Assembly: GCA_958295975.1 (NCBI GenBank) | Contig: OY282446.1 | Span: 248,001-312,000, forward strand | DNA from: Tepidiformaceae bacterium | GTDB lineage: Bacteria; Chloroflexota; Dehalococcoidia; Tepidiformales; Tepidiformaceae | Length of the DNA stretch: 64,000 nt | Direction: 5' to 3' | In this document: piece after piece, positions 2,525 through 42,226 of the stretch | Numbering within the stretch: the first letter of the stretch is position 1 | Layout of the letters: every line of letters starts with the position of its first letter | Made by a program: the position numbers and the translations under genes | The notes under the pieces: generated by a model | Databases searched by the model: none | What the model was told of the DNA's origin: nothing | Seen by the model: only the letters and a program-made list of their open reading frames with translations

Positions 2525-5029
2525 ATGAAGCTCACCCCCCCCCCCCCACTTATGGCAAGTTACGCGCTGCGGCTCATCGCGCTCGCGCTCGTCGGCGGGA
2601 CGCTGCTGTTTGCCAACTCCGCCACGCACTCCCAGACGGCCTGCTCCTTCAGCGGCACCGCCGTCCGCGCCCAGACGTACATCGCCGGTACGGCCATCGC
2701 GTCCCCCGGCGCCAACCTCCCGATCACCTTCCCCACGGCCACGGGCTCGGGCTGCACGACGCCCATCGTCTACACCCTCACGCCCGTCGCCACCGCGGGC
2801 TCCACCGGCACGAGCGTGCCCGGCCTCACCTTCAACGGGAGCGCCACGCCGCCCACGCTCACGGGCACGCCCACCGCCCCCGCGGGCTATTCCGACACGC
2901 ACGTGCTCGCCTACACCGCCACGGACGCGAACGGCGACACCGCCACCGTCCAGTACCGCATCACCGTCGAGGCCGACAGCACGCCCACTTTTGCCCGGAC
3001 CGAGTATGCCCAAACCTTCTACGTCGACCGCTACGAAGTCTGGGGCACGCCGCAGGTGGACGGCGGCAACTATTTCGGCACCGGCGGCTCCCAGTACTCG
3101 ATCGCGGTCCCCGACGGAGAGATGGCGAACTACTGGGCCAACGGGCCCCTGCGGCACATCGCCAACGCCCACCAGATGACGGCCCTGCCCACCGCGACGG
3201 CGGCGGAGACGAGCCACGTCTTCACGTTCACGGACCGGGATGGCGACGTCGCCACCACGATGCTCAAGTTCAAGGTGGAGGACGCGCCCAGTCCGGACTT
3301 CTTCCGCGACTCCATCCGCGTGAACTGGATTCTCAACAGCATCCCCCGCAACGACAGCCCGCTGACCTTCGACGGCGCGGGCGGGACGGGCACGACCTAC
3401 GCCCTCAGCGGGACGCTGCCCGCCGGGCTCACCTTCGACGCCGCCCAGCGCCGCGTCACCGGCAGGCCGACCGAGGCCGGCACGTTCGCGCTCACGCTCA
3501 CGGCCACGGACAGCAACGGCGCGAGCGACACGCAGGCCGTCAGCATCTTCGTGTCGCCGACGACCGACCCCAGCACTGCCCCCGCGTTCGCGGGCCGGAG
3601 CGTCCTGAGCTGCACCGAGGTCAGGGTGCACTGGGGGGCGCCGCGCGGGGGCAATCCCCCGGAGGCTGGGTTCACCCTGCCGACCGTCACCGGCTATCGC
3701 ATCGAGGGGAAGCAGCGCGGCGTCGATTCCGACTGGAAGCTCATCGCCGAGACCGGGGCCGCCGCCACCAGCTATACGCACTCCGATCTCCCGCCCGGCT
3801 CGCAGTGGACCTACCGCGTCCGCGCCATCACGGCGGGCGGCGTCAACCCCTGGTCCCCGAACGTGCACGCATCGACGTCCGTGAACCCCAGCAGGCCCTA
3901 CCGCGCGCTGGAGGTGGGGATGACGATCAGCGTCTCCTACCCGACGGCCAGAGGGGGCGAGATCACGCGCTTCGAGTGGTACCGCTCGCCCGATCAGGCG
4001 CCGCTGGACTGGCAGCGCGCCCCCGGAGGCCCGGCGGGGTTCTACGACGTCACGGACGCCGACGTCGGACACCTGATCGGGGTGGCCTTCCCCGGCGAGG
4101 AGTACGTCGCCTGGGTCCACGCCGTCACCAGCCAGGTGACCGTGATCCAGTCCTTCGCCGGCGTCTACGATCCGGTCATCCCCGACGACTCCCCGTCCTT
4201 CGCCGCGAGCGGCGAGCGCATCGTGGAGCCGCCCGCATCCGTCAACATCCAGCTGCCCACGGCCACCGGCGGCAGCGGGACCATCGTCTACGCGCTCAGC
4301 CCCGACCTGCCCGCCGGGCTCGTCTTCGACGAGGACGCGCTCACCGTCACGGGCACGCCCCCGCCCGACTGGACGGGGGACTACGCCTTCACCGCGCGCG
4401 ACGACGACTGCGACATCGCCACCTACACGCTCGCCATCGGCCCCGAACCAATCATCCTCGAACCCGAACCGGAGTCGCCAGCGCCGTTCGTCCCGGCGAC
4501 GCGCTACGGCGCCGTCACCGTCACCGTGGCCGAGGAAGGGAACGCGCCGGAGGACGCGGTCTACGGCGTCCGCCTCGCCTGCGGGCCGTCCGCCTTCACG
4601 CCCGCGCTGGCCGCCGGGGAGAGCTATACCGCCTCGGTCGTGGCGGGCAGCCTCTGCGCGCTCAGCGTGACCGACCGGCAGGGCGCGTCGGAGGTGCGCG
4701 GCGAGTTCGCTGGCCGCCTCATCGGGGAGGGGAGCAGCGCCGCCACCGTCACGCTGGTCCACGAGGCCCCGGAAGAGCGGCTGGAAGCGACGCTGGTGGC
4801 GGGCCTGACCTTCGTGCGCTGGCGGGGCGAGGAGACGCCCGTGGCCGAGGCCGTGGCCGAGCTCACGCTGCGCGTCACCGCCGTGCACCAGTGGGACGTG
4901 GCCACGCAGTCATGGCGCTCCTGGTCCCCCGGCGGCGAGGCCATCCCCGGCATGAACACGCTGGCCGCGTTCGAGCCGGGCGGCATCTACTTCATCTTCG
5001 CCGAAGCGGGGACGGACGCTGCGAACTGA
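2525..5029 (+). CDS. Secreted multi-domain Ig-like/FN3 protein, copy 1 (C13 tract in frame)
   Basis: This is a probable exported surface or matrix protein of about 834 residues. I place the start at ATG 2525 because GGAG (2515-2518) lies 6 nt before it. The alternative ATG 2552, which begins the signal peptide MASYALRLIALALVGGTLLF, has only poly-C before it. Between these starts lies C13 (2535-2547), in frame. After the signal peptide come several putative-Ig (He_PIG) modules with GTYAL/LPAGLTF and VTGRPTEAGTF patterns. A fibronectin-III-like module follows (GYRIEGKQRG ... YRVRAITAGGVNPWS), then another Ig module, an EPEPESPAP linker and a conserved C-terminal domain. No catalytic motif or sortase signal is visible. 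The likely role is adhesion or cell-surface interaction (inference). The paralogue at 55284 shares the N- and C-termini but differs in the middle. Confidence 0.8.
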   Translation: MKLTPPPPLMASYALRLIALALVGGTLLFANSATHSQTACSFSGTAVRAQTYIAGTAIASPGANLPITFPTATGSGCTTPIVYTLTPVATAGSTGTSVPGLTFNGSATPPTLTGTPTAPAGYSDTHVLAYTATDANGDTATVQYRITVEADSTPTFARTEYAQTFYVDRYEVWGTPQVDGGNYFGTGGSQYSIAVPDGEMANYWANGPLRHIANAHQMTALPTATAAETSHVFTFTDRDGDVATTMLKFKVEDAPSPDFFRDSIRVNWILNSIPRNDSPLTFDGAGGTGTTYALSGTLPAGLTFDAAQRRVTGRPTEAGTFALTLTATDSNGASDTQAVSIFVSPTTDPSTAPAFAGRSVLSCTEVRVHWGAPRGGNPPEAGFTLPTVTGYRIEGKQRGVDSDWKLIAETGAAATSYTHSDLPPGSQWTYRVRAITAGGVNPWSPNVHASTSVNPSRPYRALEVGMTISVSYPTARGGEITRFEWYRSPDQAPLDWQRAPGGPAGFYDVTDADVGHLIGVAFPGEEYVAWVHAVTSQVTVIQSFAGVYDPVIPDDSPSFAASGERIVEPPASVNIQLPTATGGSGTIVYALSPDLPAGLVFDEDALTVTGTPPPDWTGDYAFTARDDDCDIATYTLAIGPEPIILEPEPESPAPFVPATRYGAVTVTVAEEGNAPEDAVYGVRLACGPSAFTPALAAGESYTASVVAGSLCALSVTDRQGASEVRGEFAGRLIGEGSSAATVTLVHEAPEERLEATLVAGLTFVRWRGEETPVAEAVAELTLRVTAVHQWDVATQSWRSWSPGGEAIPGMNTLAAFEPGGIYFIFAEAGTDAAN
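2535..2547 (+). repeat. Homopolymeric C13 tract, candidate phase-variation switch
   Basis: Thirteen consecutive C lie inside the first codons after the Shine-Dalgarno-supported ATG 2525. With 13 C the signal peptide and mature protein are in frame (ON). Gain or loss of one C would terminate or redirect translation. The paralogue has 14 C at the equivalent place. Confidence 0.7.
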
Positions 5030-5085
5030 CGGCGTGGCGTGCCCGCGCGCCTGCGCCGTAGCGGCGGGCGGGGGAGAATCGGGGC

Positions 5086-6162
5086 ATGGCGCTCGACCTC
5101 GACCCCGGGCTGGCGGCGACGGGCAACCCCGCGCTCGTGAGGGCCATCGTCGCGGAGATGGACGGCGGCGCCATCCCCTTCGAGCGCTTCATGGAGCTGG
5201 CGCTCTACCACCCCGAGCACGGCTACTACCGCAAGGCCGGGCGCGTGGGGCCGTCCGGCGACTTCCTCACCAGCCCGACCGTGCACCCGATGTTCGGCTG
5301 GGCCGTGGGGGCCTGGTGCGAGTGGGTGTGGGAGGCGCTGGGGCGGCCCGATCCCTTCGCCGTGATCGAGCCCGGCGCGGGCGAGGGGGCGCTGGCGACG
5401 GCGCTGCTGGACTGGGCGGACGGACGCGGCGGCGGCTTCGCCCGCGCCCTGCGCTACACCGCCATCGAGCCGAACGCGCGCGGCGGCGACCCGCGCGTGG
5501 AGTGGCGCGCGGACGCCCCCCCGCCGGCGGAGGCGGGCGTGGCGCTTTCGAACGAGCTGTTCGACGCGCTGCCCGTGCGGCTCTTCGAGGTGGGCGAGCG
5601 CGGCCCGGCGGAGGTGTACGTGCGCTGGGACGGCGCGGCCTTCACGGAGACGCGCGGCCCCATCGCCACCATCGACGGCGCGCCCGCCGCCGGGCGCTTC
5701 GAGGCCAGCGGTCGCGCGCCCGCGACGATGGCGGCCATGTGCGCGCTCGTGCGGCGCGGCGCCGTGCTCGCCTTCGACTACGGCCATCCGGCGGAGGATC
5801 TGTGGGCGGACTGGCGCACGCGGGGGACGCTGCTCTGCTTCCACCGGCACACGGCCCACGAGGACCCCTACCAGCACGTGGGCGAGCAGGACCTGACCGC
5901 GCACGTGAACCTGTCCGAGCTGACGGCGGCGATGGAGGACGCGGGCATGACCGCCTTCGCACCCGTCAGCCAGGCGGCCTTCCTCACGGAGACGGGGCTG
6001 GGGCGGCTGGTGGAGTCGGCGCGCGACGACGCGGCGGAGTACTTCGCGCGGCGGCGCGCCTTCCAGCGGCTCACCGACGCCGCCGGGCTGGGGCGCGTGC
6101 GCGCGCTGGCGGGAACGCGCGGGCTGGCGGGAACGCCGCCCGGTTTCGGCGGCGAGGCATGA
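5086..6162 (+). CDS. SAM-dependent methyltransferase, MidA/NDUFAF7 family
   Basis: This 358-residue protein belongs to the COG1565/MidA family. The mitochondrial members (NDUFAF7) methylate an arginine of a complex I subunit; the substrate of bacterial members is mostly unknown. Family features are the N-terminal IPFERFMELALYHPEHGYY and the GDFLTSP segment. The SAM-binding loop is VIEPGAGEGALA. Further downstream is the SNELFDALPVRLFE segment, and FDYGHPAEDLW is equivalent to the family's DYG motif. ATG 5086 follows GGGGGAGAAT and gives the usual family length. It overlaps the next gene by four bases (ATGA), so the two are probably cotranslated. Confidence 0.88.
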   Translation: MALDLDPGLAATGNPALVRAIVAEMDGGAIPFERFMELALYHPEHGYYRKAGRVGPSGDFLTSPTVHPMFGWAVGAWCEWVWEALGRPDPFAVIEPGAGEGALATALLDWADGRGGGFARALRYTAIEPNARGGDPRVEWRADAPPPAEAGVALSNELFDALPVRLFEVGERGPAEVYVRWDGAAFTETRGPIATIDGAPAAGRFEASGRAPATMAAMCALVRRGAVLAFDYGHPAEDLWADWRTRGTLLCFHRHTAHEDPYQHVGEQDLTAHVNLSELTAAMEDAGMTAFAPVSQAAFLTETGLGRLVESARDDAAEYFARRRAFQRLTDAAGLGRVRALAGTRGLAGTPPGFGGEA

Positions 6163-6674
6163 GCGGCGGGGAGCGCGCGCCCGCCACCGACGCCCCGCCC
6201 CGCGCGACGCCGATCGCGGCGGGCGAGCCGATGCCGTCCTTCCGCCTGCCCGCCGTGACGGCGTCGGGGGAGCGCATCGAGGTCACGCTCGACGGGGCGC
6301 TGGCGGAGGGCGGCGCGCTCTTCCTCTTCTACCGCGACGACGGGATGCCCCTGTGCACGCGGCAGCTGCGGGCCTTCGCGCAGGAGCGCGGGACGCTGCG
6401 CGCGGCGGGCGTGCTGCCGTTCGGGATCAACACGAACGGGCTGGGCTCGCACGAGCGCTTCCAGGAGCGCGACCGCTTCCCCTTCCCGCTGCTCAGCGAC
6501 TTTTTCGGGGAGGTGACGCGCGCCTGCGGCCTCTGGGACGAGGACGAGCGCAAGGCGCGGCGGGCGCTCGTGGCCGTGGGCCGCGACGGGACCGTGCGCC
6601 ACGCCGAGCCGCACTTCAACCCGGACAACCTCGCCGCCTTCGAGGCGCTCTTCGCGGCCCTCGGGCTGGCGTAG
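6159..6674 (+). CDS. Peroxiredoxin-like protein (AhpC/TSA, PrxQ-type)
   Basis: This is a 171-residue thioredoxin-fold protein of the AhpC/TSA group, predicted to reduce peroxides in the cytoplasm. The peroxidatic Cys sits in FYRDDGMPLCTRQL, matching the PGCTKEAC region of PrxQ/Bcp. The second Cys found five residues later in many PrxQ enzymes is replaced by Leu, so it would act as a one-Cys enzyme or use another partner. Later motifs (FPLLSDFFGEVTRACGLWDEDERKARRALVAV) are typical of the family. The start overlaps the preceding stop as ATGA. The stop codon TAG is also part of a TAGACT -10 box for the next gene. Confidence 0.82.
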   Translation: MSGGERAPATDAPPRATPIAAGEPMPSFRLPAVTASGERIEVTLDGALAEGGALFLFYRDDGMPLCTRQLRAFAQERGTLRAAGVLPFGINTNGLGSHERFQERDRFPFPLLSDFFGEVTRACGLWDEDERKARRALVAVGRDGTVRHAEPHFNPDNLAAFEALFAALGLA

Positions 6675-39560: not shown

Positions 39561-39639
39561 GCGCCCATCGTGGCCGCGCCGCGCGCGGGGGGCAAGCGGC
39601 GCGGGGGGGAAGACGAACGAGAGTATCGATCATGCTTTC

Positions 39640-40041
39640 TCAGGCATCGGGGCGAGGCCTGGGCCGCCGAATAGCCGACTCGACAATCATGTCCGCATCC
39701 AGTTGCGGGCTACGGGCTCGGCGCTCTTTGTGATACCGGCGCAGGGCGTTCTCCTTAGCATCGGCCATCCTCTCATCAAGAAGCGCGCCCTCGGCATTGC
39801 CCGCCATGCGCGACTTGGCCGCGCGCATCCGGATATACAGAACGTCAGCTCCGTCCCAATCACCGAACGACGCACATTCATACGCCTGATGGCTCATCTC
39901 ATCGTAGTCGGCCTGGTCCGGGTTTTCGGCAGCCCAGCGAGCCAAGCGCTCATAGTCAAAGCACTCAGAACAGAATCGTGCGCGCCGACGAATCAATTCC
40001 CGCAGGCCAAGACGGATATCACAGATCGAACACCGCAACAT
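39640..40041 (-). CDS. Zinc-ribbon hypothetical protein downstream of the methyltransferase
   Basis: A 133-residue protein with an N-terminal four-cysteine zinc-ribbon-like motif (CSICDIRLGL ... ARFCSECF). A helical, charged remainder follows (YDEMSHQAYECASFGDWDGADVLYIRMRAAKSRMAGNAEGAL). I do not recognise a family. ATG 40041 lies 2 nt after the stop of the methyltransferase-HNH gene, so it is almost certainly cotranslated with it and may work with it. Confidence 0.65.
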   Translation of the reverse strand: MLRCSICDIRLGLRELIRRRARFCSECFDYERLARWAAENPDQADYDEMSHQAYECASFGDWDGADVLYIRMRAAKSRMAGNAEGALLDERMADAKENALRRYHKERRARSPQLDADMIVESAIRRPRPRPDA

Positions 40042-40043
40042 GA

Positions 40044-41681
40044 TCACGCCAACTCCCCTCGCCTGGCTTGTCGCCGCATCATCATGTTGACCGCCCACTT
40101 GCGGGCGCGCTCAAGATGGACGAGCTGGTCCTGCTTCACCCACAGCAGTCCTTCTGCTTCACGGTCGTCCCGCAACTGCACCATCCTCAGCTTGTTCGAC
40201 TTCCGTCCGTTGCACTTGCTGCAGACGAGGCCGAGGTTGTACAGGTCGTCGGCCCCGCCTTCATCACCGTCGGCGGGATTGCGCGCGAACAGGTGATCGA
40301 TCTCCAGCTCGTCCGGATCCTCGGCGCCGTTCGGCAGCACGGGGCGCTTGCCACAGCCCCAGCAGACGCACCCGAATTCCGCCAGCAGGAGGTTCTTGCA
40401 CTCCTGCTTCGGGATGCTGCCGTTCCACACCGTGGCGCGACGCACGCCGCCCGTGGCCACTTCGAGCTCCGGCAGCAGCTGCTCGCGCGGCGTCATCTCG
40501 GCGGGGCCGACCACCCGCGACGGCTTGATCTCCAGATCATCGGCCCAGCCCGTCTGATGCTCGCCGTAAGCGGCGGGCGTGGCCTCGGTCATACCGTCCA
40601 TCGCATAGCCGTTCTTGTAGAAGCGGCGCTTGATCATGGTCCACGAGCGATAGGCATGGTCACAGGCGATCCAGCGGCGGTTCAGCCGCTCGGCAGCGAC
40701 GGCTGTGGTGGCGCATCCGGCAAAGACGTCGAGCACGACGTCGCCCGGGTTCGAGGATGCTGCGATGATGCGCTCGTACAGGGCGAGCGGTTTCTGCGTC
40801 GAGTAACCGGTCAGCTCATTCCGCCAGCCAGAGATATTGCTGATGTGCCCATCATTCCACCAATCGGTCGGAATTTTCCCTTTCTGATGACGCCCCTCGG
40901 ATGCGGTCCCCCTGTTTGCACCGTGCACGCCGCGGGCAGGGGTGAAATCAGCAACATACGGTAGTCGAACAGCATCTCCGTCGAAACGATGTTTTGGAGA
41001 CTTGGCGAAGAAGAGAATGGTATCGTATTTCCTCGGATACCAATTCTTCGCCGCACTTGGTCCAGTGTAACACCACGCGATTTGATTGCGGAAGTTCTCG
41101 CTGCCGAAGATCGTGTCCAGCAGCAAGCGCAGATGCGAGTTAGCCTTCCAGTCGCAATGGACGTAGATGCTGCCCGTGTCCTTCAGCACGCGGTGGCACT
41201 CGACCAGCCGCACGGCCATGAAGCAGATGTACGCCGCCATGCCCTGCCCCGCCGCCGCCATCGTGACGTCGATCACGCGGTACAGCCGCACCGCCAGCGA
41301 CGGGTCCGGCATCTTGTCACCGCTATCGACAGCGGCATCGTACGCACGCGCTTCGGCCCGCAGCTCGCGCATGAAACGCGCGTGGCTGGCGTTCTTCTCG
41401 ATGTCGCGCTCCCAGTTCCACAGGTCGTCGACCTTCGTGCCCGTCTCCAGCTCGGGGAAATCGGCCTCGGTCTTGTCCGGGTAGTGCTCCAGGAACAGCC
41501 CGATCTCCTCACCCTTCTCGCGGGCGGTGATCGGCGGCCTGGCCTCGCTGCGGAACGTCTCCATCTTCCCGAAGGGCGGGTCGATGGCGATCAGGTCGAT
41601 GCAGGCATCGTCCATCGACAGCAAGAACCGCAGGTTGTCCATGAGCGCCAGCGTGCGGTTCGGGAAGTTGGGTTCAGGCAC
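40044..41681 (-). CDS. DNA methyltransferase fused to HNH nuclease
   Basis: This 545-residue protein joins two activities. The N-terminal part is an N4/N6 amino-methyltransferase of the beta type, with motif IV IAIDPPF at about residue 34 and motif I LDVFAGCATTAVAAERLNRRWIACD near residue 310. The region in between is the probable target-recognition region. The C-terminal 120 residues form an HNH module: CWGCGKRP, then DELEIDHLFARNP, DDLYNLGLVCSKCNGRKSNK, with two CxxC pairs, the D-H pair and the final N. GTG 41681 follows GGAGG by 8 nt; TTG 41687 is too close to it. A TAGGAT box lies at 41720-41725. It could be a single-chain restriction-modification enzyme (inference). Confidence 0.85.
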   Translation of the reverse strand: MPEPNFPNRTLALMDNLRFLLSMDDACIDLIAIDPPFGKMETFRSEARPPITAREKGEEIGLFLEHYPDKTEADFPELETGTKVDDLWNWERDIEKNASHARFMRELRAEARAYDAAVDSGDKMPDPSLAVRLYRVIDVTMAAAGQGMAAYICFMAVRLVECHRVLKDTGSIYVHCDWKANSHLRLLLDTIFGSENFRNQIAWCYTGPSAAKNWYPRKYDTILFFAKSPKHRFDGDAVRLPYVADFTPARGVHGANRGTASEGRHQKGKIPTDWWNDGHISNISGWRNELTGYSTQKPLALYERIIAASSNPGDVVLDVFAGCATTAVAAERLNRRWIACDHAYRSWTMIKRRFYKNGYAMDGMTEATPAAYGEHQTGWADDLEIKPSRVVGPAEMTPREQLLPELEVATGGVRRATVWNGSIPKQECKNLLLAEFGCVCWGCGKRPVLPNGAEDPDELEIDHLFARNPADGDEGGADDLYNLGLVCSKCNGRKSNKLRMVQLRDDREAEGLLWVKQDQLVHLERARKWAVNMMMRRQARRGELA

Positions 41682-41719
41682 GGCCAAGCCTCCTCATGCG
41701 CCGCGGAGCGCCGACGGCC

Positions 41720-41725
41720 ATCCTA
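41720..41725 (-). promoter_or_regulatory. TAGGAT -10 box of the methyltransferase-HNH operon
   Basis: The box lies about 38 nt before GTG 41681, with GGAGG in between. Confidence 0.4.
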
Positions 41726-41758
41726 GCACGGGCGCGCTACTGCGGGGGGGAGCCGCGC

Positions 41759-42226
41759 CTACCCGAAGAGGACGGCGTCGATGCCCCAGGTGCCGCCCGC
41801 GCCCGTGACGAAGAGGACGACGGCGATGAGCAGCATCATCAGGTTCTGCCCCTGCTCGCCCTGGTCACGCAGGCCCGCGAGCAGCAGGTAGTTGAGGTTG
41901 AGGAAGGCGGCCAGCGCCAGCCCCGCGAACGCGAGGAAGCCGAAGGCGATGCTCACGCCCGCCGCGAATTCGCCCAGCACCACCAGCCAGGAGGTGACGA
42001 CCCAGGCGCGTTCGCTTCGCAGGGAGGTGGCGCGCAGGAGGCGGGCGTAGGCGGGCAGGGGATGATCCGCGGCGAGGCCCTCGACCCAGCCGCGCGCGTC
42101 GCCGCGCAGGAAGCCGCGCAGGTCCTTGTGGCGCACGCTTTCCAGCCACCAGAGGCCCAGCCCCACGCGCAGCAGCGCGAGCCACTCCTCCTTCGTCAGC
42201 CAGCCGAAGACGTCCAGCGGTTCCAC
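41759..42226 (-). CDS. DoxX family membrane protein
   Basis: A 155-residue protein with four predicted transmembrane helices and DoxX/TQO small-subunit features. It contains EEWLALLRVGLGLWWLESVRHKD near the N-terminus. WVVTSWLVVLGEFAAGVSIAFGFLAFAGLALAAFLNLNYLL and QGQNLMMLLIAVVLFVTGAGGTWGIDAVL follow. DoxX proteins are linked to thiosulfate:quinone reduction or redox stress, but most are uncharacterised. GTG 42226 has a TAGCGT box 8 nt upstream, so it looks leaderless. It is divergent from orn. Confidence 0.85.
   Translation of the reverse strand: MEPLDVFGWLTKEEWLALLRVGLGLWWLESVRHKDLRGFLRGDARGWVEGLAADHPLPAYARLLRATSLRSERAWVVTSWLVVLGEFAAGVSIAFGFLAFAGLALAAFLNLNYLLLAGLRDQGEQGQNLMMLLIAVVLFVTGAGGTWGIDAVLFG

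What the first reader, a model, noticed from the sequence alone, without database searches (positions are those of the whole stretch)
40044..41681. Single-chain DNA methyltransferase with an HNH nuclease domain
A beta-type amino-methyltransferase (DPPF, then FAG) continues in one frame into a full HNH module with two CxxC pairs. No separate restriction gene is nearby. One polypeptide may therefore modify and cut, or cut according to methylation state. The fusion order and the linked zinc-ribbon gene do not match the restriction-modification layouts I know well.
Basis: partly seen in the sequence, partly recalled or inferred. Interest (0 to 1): 0.6.

Follow-up and report, generated by a model that had tools for sequence, protein, structure and literature searches.

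The report
Methyltransferase fused to HNH nuclease
This gene encodes one protein with a DNA-marking half and a DNA-cutting half, and it belongs to a widespread, seemingly undescribed family whose members swap mainly their DNA-recognition part, so it is probably a one-gene bacterial defence system.

Summary
Observation confirmed. Window 40044-41681 (-) is one intact ORF: a beta-class N6/N4 MTase (PF01555, 141 bits), then an HNH module (PF01844, 28 bits; cut-off 21.4). It is not an accident. The 2.4 Mb genome carries six such fusions, and I aligned 49 from 22 genomes and 3 viral contigs. MTase DPPF is kept in 49/49, HNH Asp/His/Asn in 46/47/49 of 49. The HNH part is under purifying selection. 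The target-recognition domain (TRD) is exchanged: one tandem pair is 88-100% identical on both sides of a ~0.5-kb cassette at 39-58%. One HNH type thus works with many TRDs, the logic of single-chain Type IIC/IIG restriction-modification. The sister clade has the same MTase frame with a C-terminal Mrr PD-(D/E)XK nuclease. The window copy sits in a ~2.16-kb insertion absent from all 8 congeners. Most likely it is a bifunctional RM enzyme of unusual layout (beta-MTase first, HNH last), not found in the papers searched. No activity was tested. The linked Zn-ribbon gene is not conserved.

The parts
40044..41681 (-). MTase-HNH fusion gene (545 aa from the GTG at 41681)
   Evidence: ORF, Pfam PF01555 + PF01844, alignment A1
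40656..41597 (-). beta-class amino-MTase domain (Pfam stretch 31-344 of the 547-aa ORF); DPPF at residues 34-37 and F-A-G-C-A at 320-324 of the 545-aa protein
40806..41066 (-). variable target-recognition region, about residues 206-292; the part exchanged between relatives
40167..40373 (-). HNH module, about residues 437-505 (Cys440/443, Asp462-His463, Asn482, Cys487/490, Asn491, Lys494)
39640..40041 (-). 133-aa two-CxxC (zinc-ribbon-like) gene starting 2 bp after the fusion's stop; not conserved elsewhere
39601..41764 (.). insertion of about 2.16 kb holding only these two genes; the flanks are adjacent in the 8 other genomes of the genus

Best explanation
A single-polypeptide restriction-modification enzyme. 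The beta-class MTase methylates adenine (inferred from DPPF and the nearest structures) in a site read by its internal TRD. The C-terminal HNH domain, with no evident specificity of its own, cuts DNA when that same site is unmethylated. Protection and attack therefore change together when the TRD is swapped, as in Type IIG/IIC enzymes. Shown here: the fusion, conservation of both active sites, purifying selection on the HNH, TRD exchange on a constant MTase+HNH frame, and an Mrr-type nuclease in the same slot in the sister clade. Inferred: methylation, cleavage, coupling of the two, and an anti-phage/anti-plasmid role.
For: Domains. 49 fusions: DPPF 49/49, C440 49, C443 47, D462 46, H463 47, N482 49, C487 49, C490 47, N491 49, K494 48. 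HNH dN/dS over 11 chosen pairs: 0.01-0.10 in 7, dS saturated with dN 0.04 and 0.09 in 2, 0.36 in 1, and no nonsynonymous change at dS 0.11 in the tandem pair. TRD swaps: tandem pair on one contig with sharp borders; mean identity over all pairs N 0.56, C 0.60, HNH 0.42, TRD 0.20. The C-terminal slot holds PF04471 Mrr_cat in the sister clade, one HNH/Mrr change on the tree. Six dispersed copies in one genome with GC 0.59-0.64 against loci of 0.69-0.73. Absent from congeners at two loci, and no match at a third. Nearest solved MTases are m6A enzymes.
Against: No activity, motif or methylome data. In 2 of 49 the HNH His aligns as Arg, and in 3 of 49 the Asp differs. Models do not resolve the HNH fold well (block pLDDT 35-79; 40-55), because few fused rows could be used. 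Some viral contigs carry HNH fusions (3 of 115 family members classed there), which also fits a phage-serving role. Close relatives without any nuclease exist.
Confidence: 0.72

Rival explanations
1. The HNH cuts methylated rather than unmethylated sites (a modification-dependent nuclease joined to a MTase), or nicks after methylation as part of repair or signalling.
For: The HNH half resembles McrA among solved structures (6ghc), and HNH is common in modification-dependent enzymes (passages of PMC12707154).
Against: No reader domain (SRA, EVE, wH) was found. A self-methylating enzyme that cuts its own product would be lethal unless the mark were confined to foreign DNA.
Confidence: 0.1
2. A mobile, homing-like gene: the HNH breaks DNA at unoccupied or unmethylated loci to help the gene spread, and the MTase protects the host.
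For: Six lone copies between housekeeping genes, precise absence in congeners, low GC, and occurrence on viral contigs.
Against: The six insertion flanks share no obvious sequence or terminal repeat (by eye); the TRD exchange fits defence specificity; the insertions carry different neighbour genes.
Confidence: 0.1
3. The enzyme is a MTase only, and the HNH module is a structural or DNA-binding leftover.
For: Nuclease-free relatives exist (three orthologues beside the same genes); two members have Arg in place of His.
Against: Active-site residues and low dN/dS are kept in nearly all.
Confidence: 0.06

Closest known systems
Type IIC/IIG restriction-modification enzymes (MmeI, Eco57I, BpuSI, BtgZI)
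   Same: R and M in one chain; one recognition module serving both; specificity diversifies by change of the recognition module (passages of PMC4081073)
   Different: Those described there are N-terminal PD-D/EXK + gamma-class MTase, or for BtgZI alpha-class MTase + C-terminal PD-D/EXK; here a beta-class MTase with internal TRD + C-terminal HNH
Unnamed beta-MTase + Mrr_cat fusions (plasmids, phages such as Mycobacterium phage Amgine gp37, two in this genome)
   Same: Same MTase scaffold; sister clade on the tree
   Different: PD-(D/E)XK Mrr-type nuclease instead of HNH
Beta-class MTases RsrI, MboIIA, CcrM and Type III Mod subunits (EcoP15I, Mbo45V)
   Same: MTase fold and motif order
   Different: The matches cover the MTase part only; no adjacent Res gene here
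HNH domains of McrA, AceCas9, IscB and group II intron maturase
   Same: Same HNH type by profile (NCBIfam IscB 24 bits, cut-off 175)
   Different: Those are joined to other recognition parts (recalled); no RNA-guide module here

Membership tests
Type IIC (R and M in one protein) | MTase and endonuclease domains in one chain | tested here: met
   Pfam both halves; 49 fusions. Domains only, not activities
Type IIC | Both activities demonstrated | not testable with these tools
   needs purified enzyme
Type IIG | gamma-class MTase with nuclease harnessed to the same specificity module (as in PMC4081073) | tested here: not met
   MTase is beta-class: DPPF first, FxG last, nearest RsrI/MboIIA/M.BceJIV
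Type IIG | One recognition module shared by R and M | tested here: inconclusive
   TRD exchange on a constant MTase+HNH frame implies it; not measured
Type IIG | AdoMet-stimulated cleavage | not testable with these tools
   biochemical
Type III RM | Separate Res helicase-nuclease gene beside Mod | tested here: not met
   none among 10 flanking ORFs
Orphan CcrM-type MTase | No cognate nuclease | tested here: not met
   HNH fused and conserved
RNA-guided HNH nucleases (IscB/Cas9) | RuvC and RNA-binding parts | tested here: not met
   only HNH matches, residues 426-507, 24 bits against cut-off 175

The most novel reading that the evidence does not exclude
A new architectural class of one-gene restriction-modification in which a beta-class MTase frame is a common chassis: its TRD is exchanged as a cassette, and its nuclease slot holds either HNH or Mrr-type PD-(D/E)XK. 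Whole specificities spread as lone genes to many genomic sites and onto phages.
Probability: 0.45. Interest if true: 0.65.

Novelty: new variant of a known kind. Interest (0 to 1): 0.52.

Why it matters
If bifunctional, it adds the beta MTase class and the HNH fold to single-chain RM, and gives a set of natural TRD swaps (same HNH, different TRD) from which recognition rules could be derived. It would also mean that many genes annotated only as 'DNA methyltransferase' in genomes, plasmids and phages are complete restriction systems.

Tried and rejected
Zinc-ribbon gene as a conserved partner: rejected (one E=0.008 match beyond the own genome in 294 genomes; none in phages). Plasmid and phage matches covering most of an HNH-fusion query were first read as further HNH fusions; of the six I translated, five proved to be Mrr-type and one (Providencia) has neither domain evident. 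The genome-contig scan gave 3 Bacteroidota loci without HNH. Structure models support the MTase fold but not the HNH fold independently. Terminal repeats or target duplications of the insertion: none evident by eye. Literature: no paper naming a MTase-HNH fusion in 10 searches of the held library; REBASE, subscription journals and preprints were not searchable, so it may be listed there. Papers: I saw search listings, and 'find' passages only of PMC4081073, PMC12707154, PMC6299218, PMC10853773 and PMC6329791.

Full report
What is there. The ORF at 40044-41687 (-) is intact. It has a beta-class amino-MTase domain and a C-terminal HNH module, both above Pfam's curated cut-offs. PHROGs shows both halves and PADLOC the MTase half. 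Foldseek on the model (mean pLDDT 71) ranks RsrI, M.BceJIV and MboIIA first. The HNH part is poorly resolved in both models, so its assignment rests on sequence: Pfam, and a family profile that finds AceCas9, McrA and other HNH chains in the PDB. No PDB sequence listed covers both halves.

A family, not an accident. In the own genome 17 places match PF01555 and 9 match PF01844. Six ORFs hold both: the window copy and those near 1730k, 1803k, 1987k, 2022k and 2215k. In a class survey, 101 of 294 genomes match the fusion profile at E<=1e-30, and in the listed rows I count at least 25 genomes with a match reaching the HNH end (position 470 or more of 494); the listing is cut, and only the best candidates of each genome were scored, so this is a lower bound. 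In a phylum survey at E<=1e-100, 53 of 400 match and 13 reach the HNH end, nine of these in other classes. From fetched loci I collected 50 fusion ORFs, dropped one truncated duplicate, and aligned 49 (46 from 22 genomes, 3 from viral contigs). Two of the three viral contigs carry phage-like genes near the fusion (L113, L125, judged by eye); L108 is less clear.

Both active sites are kept. DPPF 49/49, motif I Phe 48/49 and Gly 49/49; HNH Cys440 49, Cys443 47, Asp462 46, His463 47, Asn482 49, Cys487 49, Cys490 47, Asn491 49, Lys494 48. Against this: His is replaced by Arg in two related members (L196, L241), and Asp by Asn, Glu or Gly in three. Nei-Gojobori estimates for 11 chosen close pairs give HNH dN/dS of 0.01-0.10 in seven; in two dS is saturated with dN 0.04 and 0.09; the weakest case is the own-genome pair 1730k/1987k at 0.284/0.78; the tandem pair has no nonsynonymous HNH change at dS 0.11.

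The recognition part is a cassette. Mean pairwise identity is 0.56 (N), 0.60 (C), 0.42 (HNH) but 0.20 in the TRD; the linker before the HNH is also variable (0.21). In close pairs the contrast is sharp: L251/L089 N 1.00, HNH 0.95, TRD 0.10; L084/L089 HNH 0.97, TRD 0.11. The tandem pair L095 runs at 88-100% nucleotide identity over the first 360 nt, 39-58% from about 420 to 960, then 93-100% to the end. The own-genome pair 1730k/1987k shows the same at the front, with a more divergent rear. Some pairs also share the TRD (L242/L202 0.88; L192/L189 0.84), as expected of orthologues. One HNH type with many TRDs means the HNH need not read the sequence itself; the simplest reading is a shared TRD for marking and cutting, as described for MmeI-family Type IIG enzymes (passage of PMC4081073).

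The nuclease slot is exchangeable. The nearest relatives have the same MTase frame with a C-terminal Mrr_cat domain: two in the own genome, plasmid genes of Rhizobium, Bradyrhizobium, Microbacterium and Ca. Megaera, and Mycobacterium phage Amgine gp37 (Mrr assigned there by my own profile). Of 218 family ORFs classed by profile, 126 are Mrr, 50 HNH, 31 without and 11 other; viral ones are 99 Mrr, 3 HNH, 8 without, 5 other. A quick tree of MTase parts without the TRD (153 rows; 40 of 99 viral Mrr rows kept) needs one change between HNH and Mrr; the HNH side has SH-aLRT 94 and the main Mrr side 91, both short of the star at 95. Counting all four labels, HNH needs 3 changes and Mrr 8. Three nuclease-free relatives inside the HNH side (L056, L098, L099) lie beside the same kinds of gene in three genomes, as a domesticated orphan MTase would.

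Setting. The window's insertion (about 39601-41764) is missing in all 8 other genomes of the genus: flank matches lie 2-90 bp apart (junctions aligned for 7). The 2022k copy is likewise missing in all 8 (flanks 7-125 bp apart). At the 2215k copy the flanks are about 100 bp apart in 4 of 8 and 256-2,090 bp apart in 4 of 8, without a fusion match there. The other three copies were not tested. Fusion genes have lower GC than their loci: all six in the own genome (window copy 0.634 against 0.729), and 16 of 17 long enough loci elsewhere. So they look acquired one or two genes at a time. The neighbours in the insertions differ: a two-CxxC protein in the window; a 249-aa protein with a sub-threshold HEPN match (E 0.031) and a CxxC pair at 2215k.

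Mechanism, with marks. Shown: architecture, conservation, selection, TRD exchange, nuclease exchange in the sister clade, absence from congeners. Inferred: m6A methylation, cutting by HNH at or near the unmethylated site, probably by two molecules together as presumed for other enzymes with one nuclease site per chain, and defence against foreign DNA. Two rivals remain open: cutting of methylated sites, and homing-like spread.

Known or not. Type IIC enzymes are described as mostly N-terminal PD-D/EXK with a gamma-class MTase, with BtgZI (alpha MTase, C-terminal PD-D/EXK) as the exception. A beta-class MTase with a C-terminal HNH appeared in none of the ten searches of the held library, but REBASE was not available and may list such genes. 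I therefore call it a new variant of a known kind.

Noticed in passing
own genome, 17 places: 17 matches to N6_N4_Mtase in a 2.4 Mb genome: six HNH fusions, two Mrr fusions and others.
   Followed up: partly
L034:7275-8591 and L036:7378-9048: Two beta-MTase + Mrr_cat fusions in the same genome; the same architecture is common on viral contigs and appears on plasmids annotated only as DNA methyltransferase.
   Followed up: partly
L042:9252-9998: 249-aa protein directly after the 2215k fusion, weak HEPN match plus a CxxC pair; no relative in the fetched loci.
   Followed up: partly
L056, L098, L099: HNH-less relatives in three genomes beside acyl-CoA dehydrogenase- and amidohydrolase-like genes.
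   Followed up: partly
L196 and L241: HNH catalytic His aligned as Arg in two related members whose TRDs are only 49% identical.
   Followed up: no
L238:2191-4257 and 4327-6204: Two HNH fusions side by side on opposite strands in a one-contig genome that holds at least five.
   Followed up: no
own genome near 2215k: The place between the copper-ATPase-like gene and the ispG-like gene has flanks 256-2,090 bp apart in four congeners, like an insertion hot spot.
   Followed up: no
L035:9250-10225: About 1 kb of 50% GC DNA after the 2022k fusion without a clear gene, perhaps a decayed neighbour.
   Followed up: no
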